Shown here one piece after another: positions 9,750-15,279 of a stretch of DNA of 64,000 nt (position 1 is its first letter; each line of letters begins with the position of its first letter). The position numbers and the translations under genes are program-made. The notes under the pieces were generated by a model that was not told the DNA's origin, ran no database searches, and saw nothing but the letters and a program-made list of their open reading frames with translations. The DNA is from an uncultured Hoeflea sp. (GTDB lineage: Bacteria > Pseudomonadota > Alphaproteobacteria > Rhizobiales > Rhizobiaceae), in NCBI RefSeq assembly GCF_947501405.1, contig NZ_CANMVK010000006.1, positions 1 to 64,000 on the forward strand, given 5' to 3'.

Positions 9750-11039
9750 ATGTTCCAGTCCGTCCGGCCGGTGGCTGCACTGCTGCTTTCAACCCTGTTC
9801 ATGCTGACAGCCGGCGGGATGGCGAGCTACCTGCTGCCGCTGCGCGCGGTGGCCGAGGGCTGGACCACCTTCATGGTGTCGATGATCGCCACCGGATACG
9901 CCATCGCCTTCACCTCCGCCTGCATCATCACTCCGCGGCTGGTCAAGCGCGTCGGTCATGTGCGGGTGTTTGGCGTGCTGACCACGCTGATGGCGATGTC
10001 GCTGATCCTGCATGCGCTGGTGGTTCATCCGGTCGCCTGGGTGCTGATCCGGGCGATGGCGGGATTTTCGATCGCTGGCGGTTACATGATCATCGAAAGC
10101 TGGCTTAACGAGCGCGCCGCCAATGAAAACCGCGGCATGCTGTTTTCGATCTACATGATCATCTGCATGGCGGGCGCTACTGCCGGGCAGTATGTGGTGC
10201 CACTGGGCGATCCGATGGGCCCCGCAATCTTCATGGTCTGCGCGCTGATCTATTCGATGGCGCTGCTGCCCACCGCATTGTCGGCGGCGCAGGCGCCGCA
10301 GCCGCTAACCGAAGCCAAGTTCGACATTGCCGCGCTCTACCGCCGCTCGCCGGCTGCGGTGATCGGCACACTGTTGTCCGGCATGGTTACCGGCGCCTGG
10401 TTCGGCCTCGCCCCGGTCTATGCGTCCCTTCAAAAACTCAGCACGACCGAGGGCGCGACGATGCTCGCGGCGGCAACGCTGGGCGGGGCACTTTTGCAGT
10501 ACCCGCTCGGGCGAATGTCGGACCGGATGGACCGCCGCCGGGTGATGGCGCTGGCCGGCGTGATCGGTGTCAGCGCCTGCGCCATCGCACTGGTGTTCGG
10601 CACCTTCAGCCTGATCCTGTTTTATGTGGCGATTTTCGCCTTGGGCGGGGCGATCTTTCCGGTCTATGCGCTCAACGTCGCCCACGCCAACGACCACGCC
10701 CGGCCCGATGAATTCGTCGAAGTGTCGAGCGGTATCATGATCACCTTCGGGGTGGGCACGATGGGCGGTCCGTTGCTGGCTGGCCTGATCATGGACTGGG
10801 CCGGAGCGGGCGGGTTCTTCGCCATCATCGGCATAGCCTTCGCTGCCTATTCCGGCTATATGGTCTGGCGGATCAACCGCAGGGAGATGCCCGATGAGGC
10901 CGATCGCTGGGACTTCCAGGCGATGACGCCCTATCGCGACCAGACCCCGCAGACCGCTGAACTGGATCCGCGCTCCGACCCGGCCTATGGCGAGGAGAGC
11001 GAGGACCCCGCGCCCGGAACCACATCAGGCATTGTCTGA
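9750..11039 (+). CDS. MFS transporter, YcaD-like
   Basis: The ATG at 9750 follows AGGGAG. The 429-residue product has 12 predicted hydrophobic segments and the MFS loop G-R-M-S-D-R-M-D-R-R-R between segments 8 and 9. The E-S-W-L-N-E-R segment in helix 5 is typical of the YcaD-like branch. The last ~50 residues are acidic and cytoplasmic. It is convergent with the radical SAM gene at 11075, separated by 35 bp. The substrate is unknown; export of a radical-SAM product is possible but not supported by operon structure. Confidence 0.85.
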   Translation: MFQSVRPVAALLLSTLFMLTAGGMASYLLPLRAVAEGWTTFMVSMIATGYAIAFTSACIITPRLVKRVGHVRVFGVLTTLMAMSLILHALVVHPVAWVLIRAMAGFSIAGGYMIIESWLNERAANENRGMLFSIYMIICMAGATAGQYVVPLGDPMGPAIFMVCALIYSMALLPTALSAAQAPQPLTEAKFDIAALYRRSPAAVIGTLLSGMVTGAWFGLAPVYASLQKLSTTEGATMLAAATLGGALLQYPLGRMSDRMDRRRVMALAGVIGVSACAIALVFGTFSLILFYVAIFALGGAIFPVYALNVAHANDHARPDEFVEVSSGIMITFGVGTMGGPLLAGLIMDWAGAGGFFAIIGIAFAAYSGYMVWRINRREMPDEADRWDFQAMTPYRDQTPQTAELDPRSDPAYGEESEDPAPGTTSGIV

Positions 11040-11074
11040 ACCCGGCCGACCGGTGCACTAACCGGGGCGCGCGC

Positions 11075-13105
11075 TCAGATCACCTTGTCGGACTGGTGCA
11101 TGGCCACCCGCACGGCGGTTGCCGAACTGAGCCCCTCGGCGATCCACGGTGCCAGTTGATACAGCTCTTCGGGCGGCGCATCGTTTTCGGCGAAAATCTT
11201 CACCAGCTCCGCCGAGGCGCCATCAAGATCGACCACGGAGGCGTTGAGCCGGTTGATCACCCGCAGCCGCGCCGCGCCCTCGTGGGTATGAACCCGCCAG
11301 GACATCTCGTCGGCAAAGCGCGGAAAGATGCGAACGTCGCGCGTCTGTGAGAGACCGGTGCAGTGTTCGGCCAGCTCCGCGCTGTCAAACAGCGCCAGCA
11401 GGATCAGCAAATGCTCTCGCGGGATCCAGTTGGTGGACATGTATTTGGGCACATCGAAGGCTTTGGATTTCAACTCTTCGAGATGCCGGTGGGCGTCCTG
11501 CCGGGTGTTGCCCTGCCCGACATTGTACTCGTAGTAGACGTCGATTTCGTCGCTTTCACCCTCTACCAGTTCGAGACCGAAGCGTTCGAGCTTTTTCATG
11601 ATCGGGGCATTGTGCTCGAGCGCGAAGGTGCCCGCGCCGAAGGAGCCGATGTCATCGGCATGCGACAGGATGAAGTCGATTGTCTCCTGCGCTTCTGCCT
11701 CTGTTTCGCCGGGGAAGCCGAAAAACAGGAAGCAGTGCATCCAGATGCCCGCCAAGGCGGCGTCGCGCAGATTGCCGGTCATGACCGGCCGCGGCGTGTT
11801 CTTGCGCATCAGTTCGAGCACCCGTTCGGACGCGGATTCAAGGCCCACATAAAGCGAACGGAAACCGATGGCATGTCCGTGGCGGAAATCCTCGGCGGTG
11901 TAGTATTTCTCGAACTTCATCAACCCGGTGAAGAACTGGGTGTCGCCGGGGTCTATCTCCTGTCCCAATTGCCGGAAAATCTTCGGCGGGATCGCCTCGT
12001 CGTTGAAGGCGAAAAAGACGGCGTCATGCTTTTGCTTTTGCAGATTGATGGTGTCGATCACGCTGGAAGACGAGTAGCCCGCGTATTTTTCACCATAGAC
12101 CATGCCGTGGTGGCAGAACTCGCAATGGCCCCAATAGCAACCACGCGACGACAGCAGCGGGAATGTGAGCTGTGGAGAGAAATAGGGATTGCCCACCAGA
12201 TCGTCGAACACCGGCGACGGGATTTCCTGCGGGGTGAGCGGTTTTTCGGGAGCGGTGGCCCGGATTTCGCCCTGGTCGGCGTAAACCAGACCGGAAATGC
12301 CCGCCAGATCGGCCTTGTTGAAATGAGCAAGCGACAACAGGTTTTCGAGCGGTTTTTCGCCCTCGTTGCGCACCACCACATCAATGTAGCGGCTCATCCA
12401 GTCGAGAGGCAGCGCGCCGCGCTCGAAGATCCGGGAAAAAACCGTGCCGCCAACAATCACCGGCACATCGGCGCGAGCCTTGATGGCCTTGCCGAACAGC
12501 AGCGTGAACAGCAATTGCTCCTGGCCAATGCAGGACAGGCCGACCATGCGCGGCCGGTTTTCAAGCAGCCGGTCGACCGCCGATTCGACAAAAGCTGCGA
12601 GGACCGGCGGACAATTGTCGATGAAGCGGTCGACCGTTTCGCGGTTGAGCGTGCCGCCGGCAATTTCAAAATCATGGGAGGTGATCTTGAAATCCGGCGA
12701 CAAGTCGCTGACAAAATTCAAGTAACCGTCGAGCGAGTTGACGGCGCGATAGGTGTCGCGCAACAGCCCGGCGCGGTTTTTCACCAGCGCCTCGAACGGC
12801 TGATCGTGCCAGGCCAGCAGCGCCTCGAGATCGGCGCGGTAATCGCGCCAGCACCGGACGCCATCGCGGGCGGCCTCTAGCTCCGGATCTTGCTGATCCG
12901 AGGGCGAGGCCGATTGCTGACTGCCTGAAAGCAGGATGCCGGCCGCCTCCCGGGAGAGCAGGAAATCGTAAAGCCGGATGTTCTCATCATGCACTGAGCA
13001 GGAAAAGCCGGCGCGGCGCAGCCAGGCCGCCAGCGAAGGCAGTGACAAGGGCGGTTGAAACGGGCTCCATTGCGGAACGGCGGCCAGTGCGATGTCGACA
13101 GCCAT
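11075..13105 (-). CDS. Cobalamin-binding radical SAM enzyme, candidate peptide maturase
   Basis: The ATG at 13105 is chosen because GGGGAGGT lies six bases upstream. The product is 676 residues. An N-terminal B12-binding Rossmann-type domain (about 1-290) is followed by a radical SAM core. The cluster motif is Cys323-x4-Cys328-x2-Cys331 (CYWGHCEFC), one residue longer than the usual Cx3Cx2C. Downstream segments L-Y-V-G-L-E-S-A-S and F-F-G-F-P-G-E-T fit the core. The last ~75 residues, with an N-A-S-V-V-D-L-D-G-A-S-A-E-L-V pattern, loosely resemble a PqqD/RRE peptide-binding domain. A 54-residue peptide gene lies 97 bp upstream on the same strand. Family membership is clear; the substrate is inferred. 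Confidence 0.85.
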   Translation of the reverse strand: MAVDIALAAVPQWSPFQPPLSLPSLAAWLRRAGFSCSVHDENIRLYDFLLSREAAGILLSGSQQSASPSDQQDPELEAARDGVRCWRDYRADLEALLAWHDQPFEALVKNRAGLLRDTYRAVNSLDGYLNFVSDLSPDFKITSHDFEIAGGTLNRETVDRFIDNCPPVLAAFVESAVDRLLENRPRMVGLSCIGQEQLLFTLLFGKAIKARADVPVIVGGTVFSRIFERGALPLDWMSRYIDVVVRNEGEKPLENLLSLAHFNKADLAGISGLVYADQGEIRATAPEKPLTPQEIPSPVFDDLVGNPYFSPQLTFPLLSSRGCYWGHCEFCHHGMVYGEKYAGYSSSSVIDTINLQKQKHDAVFFAFNDEAIPPKIFRQLGQEIDPGDTQFFTGLMKFEKYYTAEDFRHGHAIGFRSLYVGLESASERVLELMRKNTPRPVMTGNLRDAALAGIWMHCFLFFGFPGETEAEAQETIDFILSHADDIGSFGAGTFALEHNAPIMKKLERFGLELVEGESDEIDVYYEYNVGQGNTRQDAHRHLEELKSKAFDVPKYMSTNWIPREHLLILLALFDSAELAEHCTGLSQTRDVRIFPRFADEMSWRVHTHEGAARLRVINRLNASVVDLDGASAELVKIFAENDAPPEELYQLAPWIAEGLSSATAVRVAMHQSDKVI

Positions 13106-13174
13106 GACAGACCTCCCCGCAGTTGAAAAAGGCCGGCGCCGCACCGCGGTTTTGCGGGGGCGACGGTGTGAGCC

Positions 13175-13195
13175 GGGGCCGGAATTACCGGCCCC
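13175..13195 (-). terminator. Intergenic hairpin between peptide gene and radical SAM gene
   Basis: A perfect 8-bp stem (GGGGCCGG / CCGGCCCC) with a 5-base loop starts eight bases after the peptide stop codon. There is no T-run, so it would act as a stability or partial-termination element, favouring the short upstream message over the enzyme message. Such hairpins are common between RiPP precursor and enzyme genes. Confidence 0.6.
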
Positions 13196-13202
13196 AATGC
13201 GA

Positions 13203-13367
13203 CTACTTGGATTTTCCGTTGTTGATGTTCTGCTGGTGACCGGCAGCCAGGGATCTCTCATTCTTGAGAATGTGAACCAGGTCTTCGGGGCTGGCAGACT
13301 TGATCAGTTCAGCCACCTTGGTGTTGAACTTCATCAGGGACTGCGGCATCTCAATTGACTTGGCCAT
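13203..13367 (-). CDS. 54-residue peptide, candidate radical SAM substrate
   Basis: The ATG at 13367 has AGGAG eight bases upstream; an in-frame ATG at 13373 is too close to that site. The peptide starts MAKSIEMPQSLMKF, has a leader-like amphipathic middle with S-A-S-P-E-D-L-V-H-I-L-K, and ends in a short Gly/Asn/Gln-rich tail (G-H-Q-Q-N-I-N-N-G-K-S-K). There is no signal peptide, membrane segment or cysteine. A strong promoter lies directly upstream, and a hairpin separates it from the radical SAM gene. This layout is what RiPP precursors show: an acidic/hydrophobic leader and a small polar core. The family is not recognised, and modification is inferred only. Confidence 0.7.
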   Translation of the reverse strand: MAKSIEMPQSLMKFNTKVAELIKSASPEDLVHILKNERSLAAGHQQNINNGKSK

Positions 13368-13403
13368 AAGCATCTCTCCTCAATAAGTTGCATTAACAAT
13401 AAG

Positions 13404-13432
13404 ATGCTACTTTAGATTTTATTTGATGTCAA
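13404..13432 (-). promoter_or_regulatory. Promoter of the peptide / radical SAM cassette
   Basis: On the minus strand, a perfect TTGACA and a TAGCAT (four of six consensus bases) are separated by 17 bases. They lie in an AT-rich patch about 37-65 bp upstream of the peptide start codon. This is one of the best housekeeping-type promoters in the window. Confidence 0.7.
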
Positions 13433-13623
13433 AACCACGGTCGGGTGTCGTATCTCTCGAACACCCATAATCCATTGCTGTCGGTCTATTGCGATGTCCG
13501 CACTTGCAGCGGGTCCGCGCAACGCCCGATGGAACTCCGCGCGCCACAGCACCGCGGAGAAATCCGCACGTTTGCCGTTTCGCGCCGCAGTTCGGCAGCA
13601 AAAGAGACACGGCCGTAGCGGCT

Positions 13624-13641
13624 GCCGGCCTTTTGGCCGGC
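13624..13641 (-). terminator. Hairpin downstream of the universal stress protein gene
   Basis: A perfect 7-bp stem, GCCGGCC / GGCCGGC, with a 4-base loop lies 30 bp beyond the UspA stop codon. No T-run follows, so the call as terminator is tentative. The rest of 13433-13671 holds no supported gene. Confidence 0.4.
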
Positions 13642-13671
13642 GCTCAAATCCTGTGAGGTGAGTGCCGCCTT

Positions 13672-14085
13672 CTAGCGGACGATGAACACTGATATGTTCA
13701 CATGGGTGGCGAGATAGCCGGCATTGGAGGAAAAGAAGTGATCCCGGAATGTCGGCACGTGCGACGCCATCACCACCAGATCCGCGCCGAGTTCTTCAGC
13801 CGCGCTTTTCAGCCGGTCGTCGAGATCGACTGCGGGATCATGTGAGGTCACCGATACGGCCTCGAAGGCCACGCCATGGCGGTCGGATTGTTCGGTGCAG
13901 AAGGCTTCGAGTTTGCGGGTGTATTCGGCCGGATCGTGGGCCACAGGTCCCGGCGCCGTGGAGACCACGCCGACAGCATGCAGTTTGGCACTGTAGAGCC
14001 GTGTAAGATCGGCGGCCGTGGCGAGCGCCTTTTCCAGACGATCTGCGTGGCTCAGGTCCACCGGCACCATGATTGTCTTGTACAT
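13672..14085 (-). CDS. Universal stress protein (UspA family)
   Basis: The ATG at 14085 has GGGAGGGAG upstream. The 137-residue product has the USP fold: an N-terminal Y-K-T-I-M-V-P-V-D strand and A-A-E-E-L-G-A-D-L-V-V-M-A-S-H. The usual ATP-binding G-x2-G-x9-G-S/T near the C-terminus is degenerate (S-S-N-A-G-Y-L-A-T-H-V). It is a cytoplasmic protein of stress survival, possibly of the non-ATP-binding type. It appears monocistronic. Confidence 0.88.
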   Translation of the reverse strand: MYKTIMVPVDLSHADRLEKALATAADLTRLYSAKLHAVGVVSTAPGPVAHDPAEYTRKLEAFCTEQSDRHGVAFEAVSVTSHDPAVDLDDRLKSAAEELGADLVVMASHVPTFRDHFFSSNAGYLATHVNISVFIVR

Positions 14086-14280
14086 ATCGCACTCCCTCCC
14101 CTTTGCAGGCCGCTGATCGGACCCGGATTCGGACGCCAGCACCGCTGGCCCCTGTGCAAATCATCTAACCTGCCTGGACGCATCGCGCATTGATGAGGGT
14201 CAAGGAGCAAGGGGCCGGCTGCGGCTGCGGCCGCTATGACACTTGCGGATGGACGAGGCTTTGCCTGCGGCGTCGGCAGA

Positions 14281-15279
14281 TCACCCCTGCGGCGTCACCA
14301 GCTTGCGCTGGGCGCGGCGCTCAAGCCCCAACGCATGTTCGCGCAGGATCACGAACAGACCGGCGCCAACCACGATCGTGGTGCCAAGCAGCATGGTCCA
14401 GCTCGGGACATCGGAAAAAATGAAATAGCCGATCAGAATGCCCAGAACGATCGAGGTGTATTCAAACGGCGCGATGGTCGAGACATCGGCATGGCGATAG
14501 CTCTGGGTGAGCAGGATCTGGCCGAGACCGCCGCAAAAGCCGGCCAGTGCCATCAGCATCAGGGTCTGCGCATCGGGCATGATCCAGCCTAACGGCAGTG
14601 ATCCCAGCGACAGCACCGTGGCGGTGAGCGAGAAGTAAAGCACGATGGTCGGCGTCTTTTCGGTCAGCACCAGCTTGCGCACCAGGATCATCGCGGTGGC
14701 GCCCAGCGTGGCCGACGCAAGAACCGCCAACGCGCCCAGCGCTTCGCTTGAGCCGAAGCCGTCACCAAACAGGCTCAGCCGCGGCCAGGTGATGATCAGC
14801 ACACCACCCAGCCCGACCGCCACAGCCGACCAGCGGAAAATGCGCACCGTTTCGCCAAGAAACAACGCCGCGAACACCACGGTCAGCAGCGGCATGGCGT
14901 AGCCGATGGCGATCGCATCGGGCAGCGGCAACTGCATGATCCCGTAAAAGCCGAAGCCCATGGCCATGACGCCGACCAGGCCCCGGCGCACATGCGACAG
15001 CGGATTGGCGGTATGCCAGGCGCTCACAAGCTGCCCGCGCACCGCCAGAAAGGCCAGGATCGGCACCATGGCGAAGGCCGAGCGAAAGAACACGATCTGT
15101 CCGGGCGGCATGCCCTCGCCGCTGGCCTTGATCAGGGTCGACATGGTGACAAATACGGTCACCGAAGCCACCTTGAGAGCGATGCCGATCATCGGCGAGC
15201 CTGATTGCCCCGGGCTTTGCTGCGGGGCCCCGGCCGGCTGCGGGACGGCGGGGATTGGCGGCGCGGCGGGATTGGTCAC
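14281..15279 (-). CDS. EamA/DMT-family transporter
   Basis: A GTG start with GGAAGAG upstream gives 332 residues. A Pro/Ala-rich cytoplasmic N-terminus of ~28 residues precedes ten hydrophobic segments forming two EamA repeats. It is an inner-membrane permease of unknown substrate, only distantly similar to the one at 4442. No regulator gene is adjacent. Confidence 0.87.
   Translation of the reverse strand: MTNPAAPPIPAVPQPAGAPQQSPGQSGSPMIGIALKVASVTVFVTMSTLIKASGEGMPPGQIVFFRSAFAMVPILAFLAVRGQLVSAWHTANPLSHVRRGLVGVMAMGFGFYGIMQLPLPDAIAIGYAMPLLTVVFAALFLGETVRIFRWSAVAVGLGGVLIITWPRLSLFGDGFGSSEALGALAVLASATLGATAMILVRKLVLTEKTPTIVLYFSLTATVLSLGSLPLGWIMPDAQTLMLMALAGFCGGLGQILLTQSYRHADVSTIAPFEYTSIVLGILIGYFIFSDVPSWTMLLGTTIVVGAGLFVILREHALGLERRAQRKLVTPQG

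What the first reader, a model, noticed from the sequence alone, without database searches (positions are those of the whole stretch)
11075..13432. Candidate RiPP-like cassette: 54-residue peptide plus cobalamin-dependent radical SAM enzyme
A small gene with a good ribosome binding site and a near-consensus promoter sits 97 bp upstream of a B12-binding radical SAM enzyme on the same strand. A perfect hairpin lies between them, which would bias expression to the peptide. The peptide has a hydrophobic/acidic leader-like part and a short Gly/Asn/Gln/Lys-rich tail with no cysteine, so C-methylation of core residues is a sensible guess. No exporter, peptidase or immunity gene is in the same operon, so the cassette would be minimal. 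I recognise no family for the peptide.
Basis: partly seen in the sequence, partly recalled or inferred. Interest (0 to 1): 0.85.

Follow-up and report, generated by a model that had tools for sequence, protein, structure and literature searches.

The report
Mobile asparagine-rich peptide with radical enzyme
A tiny gene for a 54-residue peptide and the gene next to it, for a vitamin-B12-dependent radical enzyme, occur together in very distant bacteria, so the enzyme most likely modifies the peptide's asparagine-rich end to make a small product that is not yet known.

Summary
On the minus strand, a 54-codon gene (13203-13367) with a ribosome-binding site lies 97 bp upstream of a 676-residue B12-binding radical SAM enzyme (11075-13105). 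The pairing is real: one scan of species genomes with six exact 8-residue probes found two full-length relatives of the enzyme (45-46% identity), in Parafrankia and Nonomuraea (Actinomycetota; the window looks rhizobial). Both have a homologous peptide gene 92 and 81 bp upstream. A profile of those two peptides picks the window peptide out of 1,566 window ORFs at E = 5e-10 (next 5.5). They share a leader and an Asn-rich tail (8 Asn in each actinobacterial copy, 3 in the window). 12 of 12 congeneric loci compared lack both genes, so the pair sits in an inserted segment of about 2.6 kb.

Best reading: a minimal RiPP cassette. The leader guides the enzyme, which probably C-methylates Asn/Gln-rich core residues. 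No chemistry is shown. The enzyme is far below the cut-off of TIGR03975 and has CX4CX2C, not the CX7CX2C of three members examined; the precursor reaches no Pfam or NCBIfam cut-off. A C-terminal recognition element is hinted at by a low-confidence model only. Exporter, protease, product and function are unknown.

The parts
13203..13367 (-). 54-residue precursor peptide gene (stop codon included); conserved leader residues ~7-42, variable N/Q-rich tail 44-54
13206..13238 (-). putative core: HQQNINNGKSK (residues 44-54); counterparts NNNNHNNNNTKPK and NNNNNNNNQPSPPIEV in the relatives
   Evidence: alignment; counts; core boundary is inference
11075..13105 (-). 676-residue B12-binding radical SAM enzyme (stop codon included)
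12338..12586 (-). B12-binding domain, residues 174-256 (PF02310, 38.4 bits, cut-off 32.1)
11669..12148 (-). radical SAM domain, residues 320-479 (PF04055, 31.3 bits, cut-off 29.5)
12113..12139 (-). CX4CX2C iron-sulfur motif CYWGHCEFC, residues 323-331, one residue longer than the usual CX3CX2C
11129..11323 (-). C-terminal region, residues 595-659, modelled as three strands then helices; possible RRE, low confidence
   Evidence: suggestive; no sequence support
13404..13432 (-). promoter-like TTGACA-17-TAGCAT
   Evidence: not above chance by itself
13376..13381 (-). ribosome-binding site GAGGAG, 8 nt before the ATG
   Evidence: sequence printed
13175..13195 (-). perfect 8-bp hairpin in the gap between peptide and enzyme, no T-run
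11040..13671 (.). segment between the MFS gene and the uspA-like gene; neither of its two genes is at this place in 12 of 12 congeneric loci

Best explanation
A two-gene, horizontally mobile RiPP cassette. The peptide is the precursor: its conserved first ~42 residues are a leader that the enzyme recognises (perhaps through a C-terminal RRE), and its Asn/Gln-rich tail is the core. The enzyme uses methylcobalamin, SAM and a [4Fe-4S] cluster held by CX4CX2C to abstract hydrogen atoms from core residues; the commonest outcome for this enzyme group is transfer of a methyl group to an unactivated carbon, here probably iteratively on Asn/Gln. A hairpin between the genes may favour the peptide transcript in this organism. 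Leader removal and export, if they occur, must be done by genes elsewhere in the genome. Shown: both genes, their homology and pairing across phyla, their joint absence at this place in congeners. Inferred: substrate relation, core position, C-methylation, the role of the tail.
For: Peptide upstream of the enzyme in 3 of 3 members of the clade, gaps 97, 92 and 81 bp for the start codons chosen. Leave-one-out profile match E = 5e-10, leader alone 1.9e-8; best of 20,000 shuffles 17.0 bits against 30.7. Enzyme clade 100/100 in an 18-row tree. One peptide match per genome where the enzyme is; neither gene in 211 other actinomycete genomes searched for both. Enzyme absent from 17 of 17 other congeneric genomes at 1e-20; enzyme and peptide absent from the locus in 12 of 12 congeners, so the two arrived together or were lost together. 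The enzyme's best curated match is peptide-directed: TIGR03975 RiPP C-methyltransferase in all three members (102.7, 121.6, 116.6 bits), with ApyD also matched (48.9, 70.0, 68.9). ApyD is a B12 radical SAM enzyme described as RRE-containing that makes beta-methyltyrosine (PMC10635010, passages). Leader conserved, tail variable but Asn-rich, the usual precursor pattern.
Against: No modification has been observed. All scores to TIGR03975 are far below its cut-off (281.85) and the Fe-S motif differs from three members examined. RRE not found by Pfam nor by profile comparison with PqqD-like domains: C-terminal slices 0.15-0.23% probability, while two N-terminal slices scored higher, 18 and 20%, also not significant. 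No exporter, peptidase or immunity gene in the unit. Only three members are known. B12 radical SAM enzymes also do non-methylating chemistry (PMC13331322, start of abstract in the listings).
Confidence: 0.75

Rival explanations
1. Same precursor-enzyme pair, but the enzyme does other B12 radical chemistry (ring closure, cross-link, epimerisation, oxidation), or the product is a small peptide-derived cofactor or metallophore instead of a C-methylated peptide.
For: Sequence cannot separate these; BchE and other B12 radical SAM models lie among the weaker hits. In Parafrankia a creatininase-family gene, best like the mycofactocin peptidase MftE (132.5 bits, cut-off 172), lies about 200 bp beyond the enzyme, on the other strand.
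Against: The top model in all three members is a C-methyltransferase. No creatininase in the window segment; Nonomuraea has an aldo/keto reductase there.
Confidence: 0.2
2. The short ORF is an attenuation leader: ribosomes stalling at the Asn run would control a hairpin and so the enzyme gene, as in amino-acid operons.
For: Run of 8 Asn codons in Nonomuraea (4+4 around a His in Parafrankia), then a stable hairpin in the gap in Nonomuraea (z -2.25) and the window (z -2.0 for 53 nt).
Against: The part before the tail is conserved as protein across phyla, alone at E = 1.9e-8, which attenuators do not need; the window's run is broken (QQNINN); no T-run follows the window hairpin; the whole window gap is only z -1.43 and the Parafrankia gap z -0.09.
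Confidence: 0.05
3. The peptide is not a substrate but a small partner of the enzyme (activator, adaptor or stand-alone recognition piece), and the true substrate is something else.
For: Pairing alone does not tell substrate from partner; the leader-like part could be a binding helix.
Against: The tail is variable and Asn-rich, more like a core than an adaptor (inference); no other biosynthetic gene comes with the pair.
Confidence: 0.1

Closest known systems
TIGR03975 RiPP maturation radical SAM C-methyltransferases
   Same: B12-binding plus radical SAM architecture, best curated model match for all three members; a precursor gene lies directly upstream in the Streptomyces globosus example. 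PoyC, which shares the CX7CX2C motif (its membership of TIGR03975 is recalled, not tested), methylates valine C-beta in a peptide (PMC5682303, PMC11285071, passages).
   Different: Score 102.7 against a cut-off of 281.85; CX4CX2C, not the CX7CX2C of 3 of 3 annotated members examined; separate clade in an 18-row tree; different precursor.
ApyD (NF050148), B12 radical SAM enzyme that makes beta-methyltyrosine on ApyA
   Same: Peptide-directed B12 radical SAM enzyme, described as RRE-containing (PMC10635010, passages); weak profile similarity (48.9-70.0 bits).
   Different: Far below the cut-off of 750; ApyD works in a cluster with an MNIO, its partner, a methyltransferase and a P450; the tails here have no Tyr.
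GenD1-type B12 radical SAM C-methyltransferases of aminoglycoside pathways
   Same: CX4CX2C is reported for GenD1 (PMC4340712, passage).
   Different: Substrates are aminoglycosides, not peptides; no sequence comparison was made here.
Proteusins (polytheonamide, aeronamide)
   Same: Several modified Asn residues in the core and B12 radical SAM C-methyltransferases (PMC11285071, passages).
   Different: Long leaders (recalled) and many tailoring genes; the present peptides reach no family cut-off.

Membership tests
B12-dependent (class B) radical SAM enzymes | B12-binding and radical SAM domains in one chain | tested here: met
   PF02310 and PF04055 over cut-off in the window enzyme; in the two relatives PF04055 over, PF02310 below cut-off (27.5 and 19.8 against 32.1)
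B12-dependent (class B) radical SAM enzymes | three-cysteine Fe-S motif | tested here: met
   CX4CX2C in 3 of 3 clade members and in 12 of 13 distant loci (the pattern found none in L025); spacing differs from the usual CX3CX2C
TIGR03975 RiPP C-methyltransferase | score over the curated cut-off 281.85 | tested here: not met
   102.7, 121.6, 116.6 bits
TIGR03975 RiPP C-methyltransferase | CX7CX2C motif | tested here: not met
   CX4CX2C here; CX7CX2C in 3 of 3 annotated members examined
ApyD (NF050148) | score over the curated cut-off 750 | tested here: not met
   48.9, 70.0, 68.9 bits
RiPP biosynthetic cassette | precursor gene conserved next to a modifying enzyme | tested here: met
   3 of 3
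RiPP biosynthetic cassette | conserved leader, variable core | tested here: met
   alignment; three sequences only
RiPP biosynthetic cassette | enzyme-dependent change of the peptide | not testable with these tools
   needs co-expression and mass spectrometry
RiPP biosynthetic cassette | RRE in the modifying enzyme (many but not all classes) | tested here: inconclusive
   model of residues 536-676 has strands then helices but pLDDT 52.9; VIA-align lists the RRE TbiB1 (5v1u, 5v1v) at Z 3.4/3.3, rmsd 3.6, 60 aligned, tied with unrelated chains; Foldseek 0 matches at E<=0.001; Pfam, PqqD profile and hhalign negative
RiPP biosynthetic cassette | dedicated protease, exporter or immunity gene (common, not universal) | tested here: not met
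   none in the inserted segment
known RiPP precursor families in Pfam or NCBIfam | match of the peptide to a curated precursor model | tested here: not met
   no match at a curated cut-off for any of three peptides; weak below-cut-off matches only, to DnrN (14.6 bits, window) and Skp1 and Gp_dh_C (17.5 and 12.8, Nonomuraea)
amino-acid attenuator leader peptide | unbroken run of regulatory codons followed by a terminator-type hairpin | tested here: not met
   run broken in the window, no T-run after the hairpin, no hairpin signal in Parafrankia

The most novel reading that the evidence does not exclude
A new RiPP class: poly-asparagine core peptides tailored, probably by repeated C-methylation of Asn/Gln, by one self-sufficient B12 radical SAM enzyme carrying its own leader-binding domain, spread as a two-gene mobile unit between Actinomycetota and rhizobial Alphaproteobacteria.
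Probability: 0.4. Interest if true: 0.78.

Novelty: new variant of a known kind. Interest (0 to 1): 0.6.

Why it matters
If the enzyme modifies the peptide, this is close to the smallest possible RiPP system (one precursor, one enzyme), with a core made largely of asparagine, a residue for which no radical C-methylation was mentioned in the passages I read. The pair is small enough to test in one co-expression experiment, and the three members with different tails (3 or 8 Asn, one interrupted by His) form a ready-made substrate series for asking how one B12 enzyme works along a repetitive peptide. It is also an example of a pair that the Pfam and NCBIfam cut-offs do not name.

Tried and rejected
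Searches with little or no yield: peptide in 397 genomes of the order, only the own one; peptide in plasmids, none; enzyme in 385 genomes of the class at 1e-60, only the own one; the Nonomuraea enzyme in phages, none and in plasmids, only distant hits below 60% identity, best-ranked 29%; viral contigs three times, no relative. The plasmid hits (23 records, 22-36% over part of the enzyme) and the ten other places (26-36%) are distant. I examined 7 of the 23 plasmid records and 10 of the 10 genome places for the peptide, with a three-member profile on all stop-to-stop ORFs of at least 20 residues: none, best unrelated E 14; one place, L012, lies at a contig end and was searched with short flanks only.

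RRE by eye: I first read residues ~595-676 as PqqD-like. Pfam at E up to 10, the PqqD profile on whole genomes, hhalign against ten PqqD-like domains and a PDB sequence search (best hit an unrelated endonuclease, E 0.084) did not confirm it; as a control, slices of the N-terminal part scored higher against PqqD (18 and 20%) than the C-terminal ones. The structure models are poor (pLDDT 47.9 and 52.9), with three sequences in each alignment, so the weak TbiB1 match is a hint, not a result. Foldseek's top 50 rows were mostly integrases with E above 0.1 and were disregarded.

Hairpin as conserved regulator: rejected as general. No convincing flanking repeat at the segment's edges, no tRNA in the window, no Rfam family in the window or in L017 and L018. 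Literature: eight searches; among the titles, abstract starts and counts listed (at most 20 papers per search, of up to 205 found) I saw no Asn-rich precursor with a B12 radical SAM enzyme; 'asparagine-rich' and 'Asn-rich' had 0 occurrences in the papers listed. The library lacks most subscription journals.
Full report
WHAT IS THERE. The minus strand holds a 54-codon gene at 13203-13367 and, 97 bp downstream, a 676-codon gene at 11075-13105. The enzyme has a B12-binding domain (residues 174-256) and a radical SAM domain (320-479), both over Pfam's cut-offs. Its Fe-S motif is CYWGHCEFC, CX4CX2C. Its best curated model is TIGR03975, RiPP maturation radical SAM C-methyltransferase, at 102.7 bits against a cut-off of 281.85. 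The peptide, MAKSIEMPQSLMKFNTKVAELIKSASPEDLVHILKNERSLAAGHQQNINNGKSK, matches no Pfam family at E up to 1 and in NCBIfam only DnrN at 14.6 bits, cut-off 300.

IS THE PAIR REAL. The enzyme is in none of 17 other genomes of the genus at 1e-20 and in none of the other 384 of 385 genomes of the class at 1e-60. One scan of the genome-contig collection with six exact 8-residue stretches of the enzyme matched 18 places, of which two encode relatives: Parafrankia sp. EUN1f (L017, 45%, residues 3-668) and Nonomuraea candida (L018, 46%, residues 2-659), both Actinomycetota. Directly upstream of both lies a small ORF: MTSPTGNINLRIAELVKDARPEEIVEVLTDSSERSLLSAAGGNNNNHNNNNTKPK and MTDAAARINRQIAEMMKAASPEEIVEILGAREDTLLSDDNNNNNNNNQPSPPIEV. 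To avoid circularity, a profile was built from these two alone and run against all 1,566 stop-to-stop ORFs of the window: the window peptide came first at E = 5e-10, the next at 5.5; with the Asn-rich tails cut off, 1.9e-8 and 1.7. In the reverse direction the window peptide finds the two among 731 ORFs of L017 and L018 at 5.2e-7 and 2.5e-6, next 11. Codon-position differences are 22/11/28, 24/10/28 and 17/13/24 for the three pairs, a coding pattern. Gaps to the enzyme are 97, 92 and 81 bp for the start codons chosen.

ARE THEY EVER APART. The own genome and each of the two actinobacterial genomes have one match to the peptide. Among 212 actinomycete genomes searched for both, the enzyme (1e-60) and the peptide (1e-3) were each found in one, the same genome. 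296 other genomes of Nonomuraea's family and 34 other genomes of Parafrankia's family lack the enzyme at 1e-80; the peptide was not sought in those. Distant B12 radical SAM enzymes (13 loci, 25-32% identity) have no ORF like the peptide nearby. In an 18-row tree the three paired enzymes form one clade at 100/100, apart from three TIGR03975 rows, also 100/100; L025 was not in that tree, some rows have long branches and the root is only drawn. A limit: the 8-residue probes would miss a relative that has none of the six stretches; one of them, WMHCFLFF, is shared by all three members.

HOW IT CAME HERE. In 12 congeneric genomes I looked at the locus: UDG - MFS - (uspA-like) - DMT - xanthine-dehydrogenase-like - pepN is kept. 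None of 12 has the enzyme or the peptide there (tblastn at 1e-3 and the peptide profile at E 0.01). The uspA-like gene follows MFS in 4 of 12, DMT follows in 7, and one (L060) has other genes in between. The MFS gene is in 17 of 18 genomes of the genus, so it belongs to the genus backbone and not to the cassette. The window segment 11040-13671 is therefore best read as an insertion of both genes together. Its GC (enzyme 0.605, peptide 0.509) is below that of MFS and DMT-XDH (0.644, 0.646), though the neighbouring uspA-like gene has 0.604, so composition is weak evidence. The Parafrankia copy lies about 2.5 kb from a RepSA replication initiator, pSAM2 type (546.5 bits), which fits a mobile setting.

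HOW IT MOST LIKELY WORKS. Two adjacent genes that stay together across phyla, one a 54-55-residue peptide with a conserved front and a variable, Asn-rich, cysteine-free end, the other a B12 radical SAM enzyme nearest to peptide C-methyltransferases, are best read as precursor and modifying enzyme (inference, 0.75). The conserved leader would be recognised by the enzyme; the tail would be modified. Residues methylated or proposed to be methylated by peptide-directed B12 enzymes include Val, Ile, Thr, Gln and Met in polytheonamide (PMC5682303, passage) and Tyr by ApyD (PMC10635010, passages). The present tails are rich in Asn with some Gln, so Asn/Gln C-methylation is my specific prediction; no call tests it. 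ApyD is described as RRE-containing, and the RRE order is given as three strands then three helices (PMC12710340, passage; a passage of PMC7470986, words it the other way round). Residues 601-672 are modelled as three strands then helices, with pLDDT 60-72 per block for 596-655 and lower after; VIA-align ranks the RRE TbiB1 second and fourth at Z 3.4 and 3.3, level with unrelated proteins. Sequence methods do not support it. I leave it open.

COMPARISON. It is not a member of TIGR03975 by score or motif: three annotated members (Streptomyces globosus, Methylomagnum, Sinorhizobium) have CX7CX2C, a motif reported as unconventional for the polytheonamide and bottromycin enzymes (PMC5682303). CX4CX2C is reported for GenD1 (PMC4340712, passage) and is found in 12 of 13 distant loci here. 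It works like a small RiPP system and is a new variant: new precursor family, separate enzyme clade, no other genes.

VERDICT. Observation confirmed, interpretation supported in its central point, chemistry untested. Three members are few; interest 0.6.

Noticed in passing
L018:5637-7374 (-): In Nonomuraea candida a second radical SAM system lies divergently upstream of the pair: a SPASM maturase just under the cut-off of TIGR03913 (587.6 against 591.75, GDL-motif peptide maturase) and a DUF1843 protein (43.3 bits).
   Followed up: partly
L017:10218-10922 (-): Creatininase-family gene about 200 bp beyond the Parafrankia enzyme, opposite strand, nearest to the mycofactocin peptidase MftE (132.5 bits, cut-off 172).
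   Followed up: partly
L017:12482-13864 (-): RepSA (pSAM2-type) replication initiator near the Parafrankia pair: possible integrative element.
   Followed up: no
window 11037-14283 and L050-L061: The interval between the MFS and DMT genes varies within the genus (nothing, uspA-like, other genes in L060, the present pair), as if it were a small insertion spot.
   Followed up: partly
L003:900-6734: Rhizobium phaseoli plasmid: ATP-binding protein, S8 peptidase and a B12 radical SAM enzyme (29% identical) with a C-terminal region that looks PqqD-like by eye (not confirmed by hhalign); no precursor recognised.
   Followed up: partly
L027, L028, L029, L030, L031: Long (858-931 aa) B12 radical SAM proteins whose N-terminal parts look like TPR repeats by eye, in four genomes of the window's phylum, two copies in one genome (G878).
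   Followed up: no
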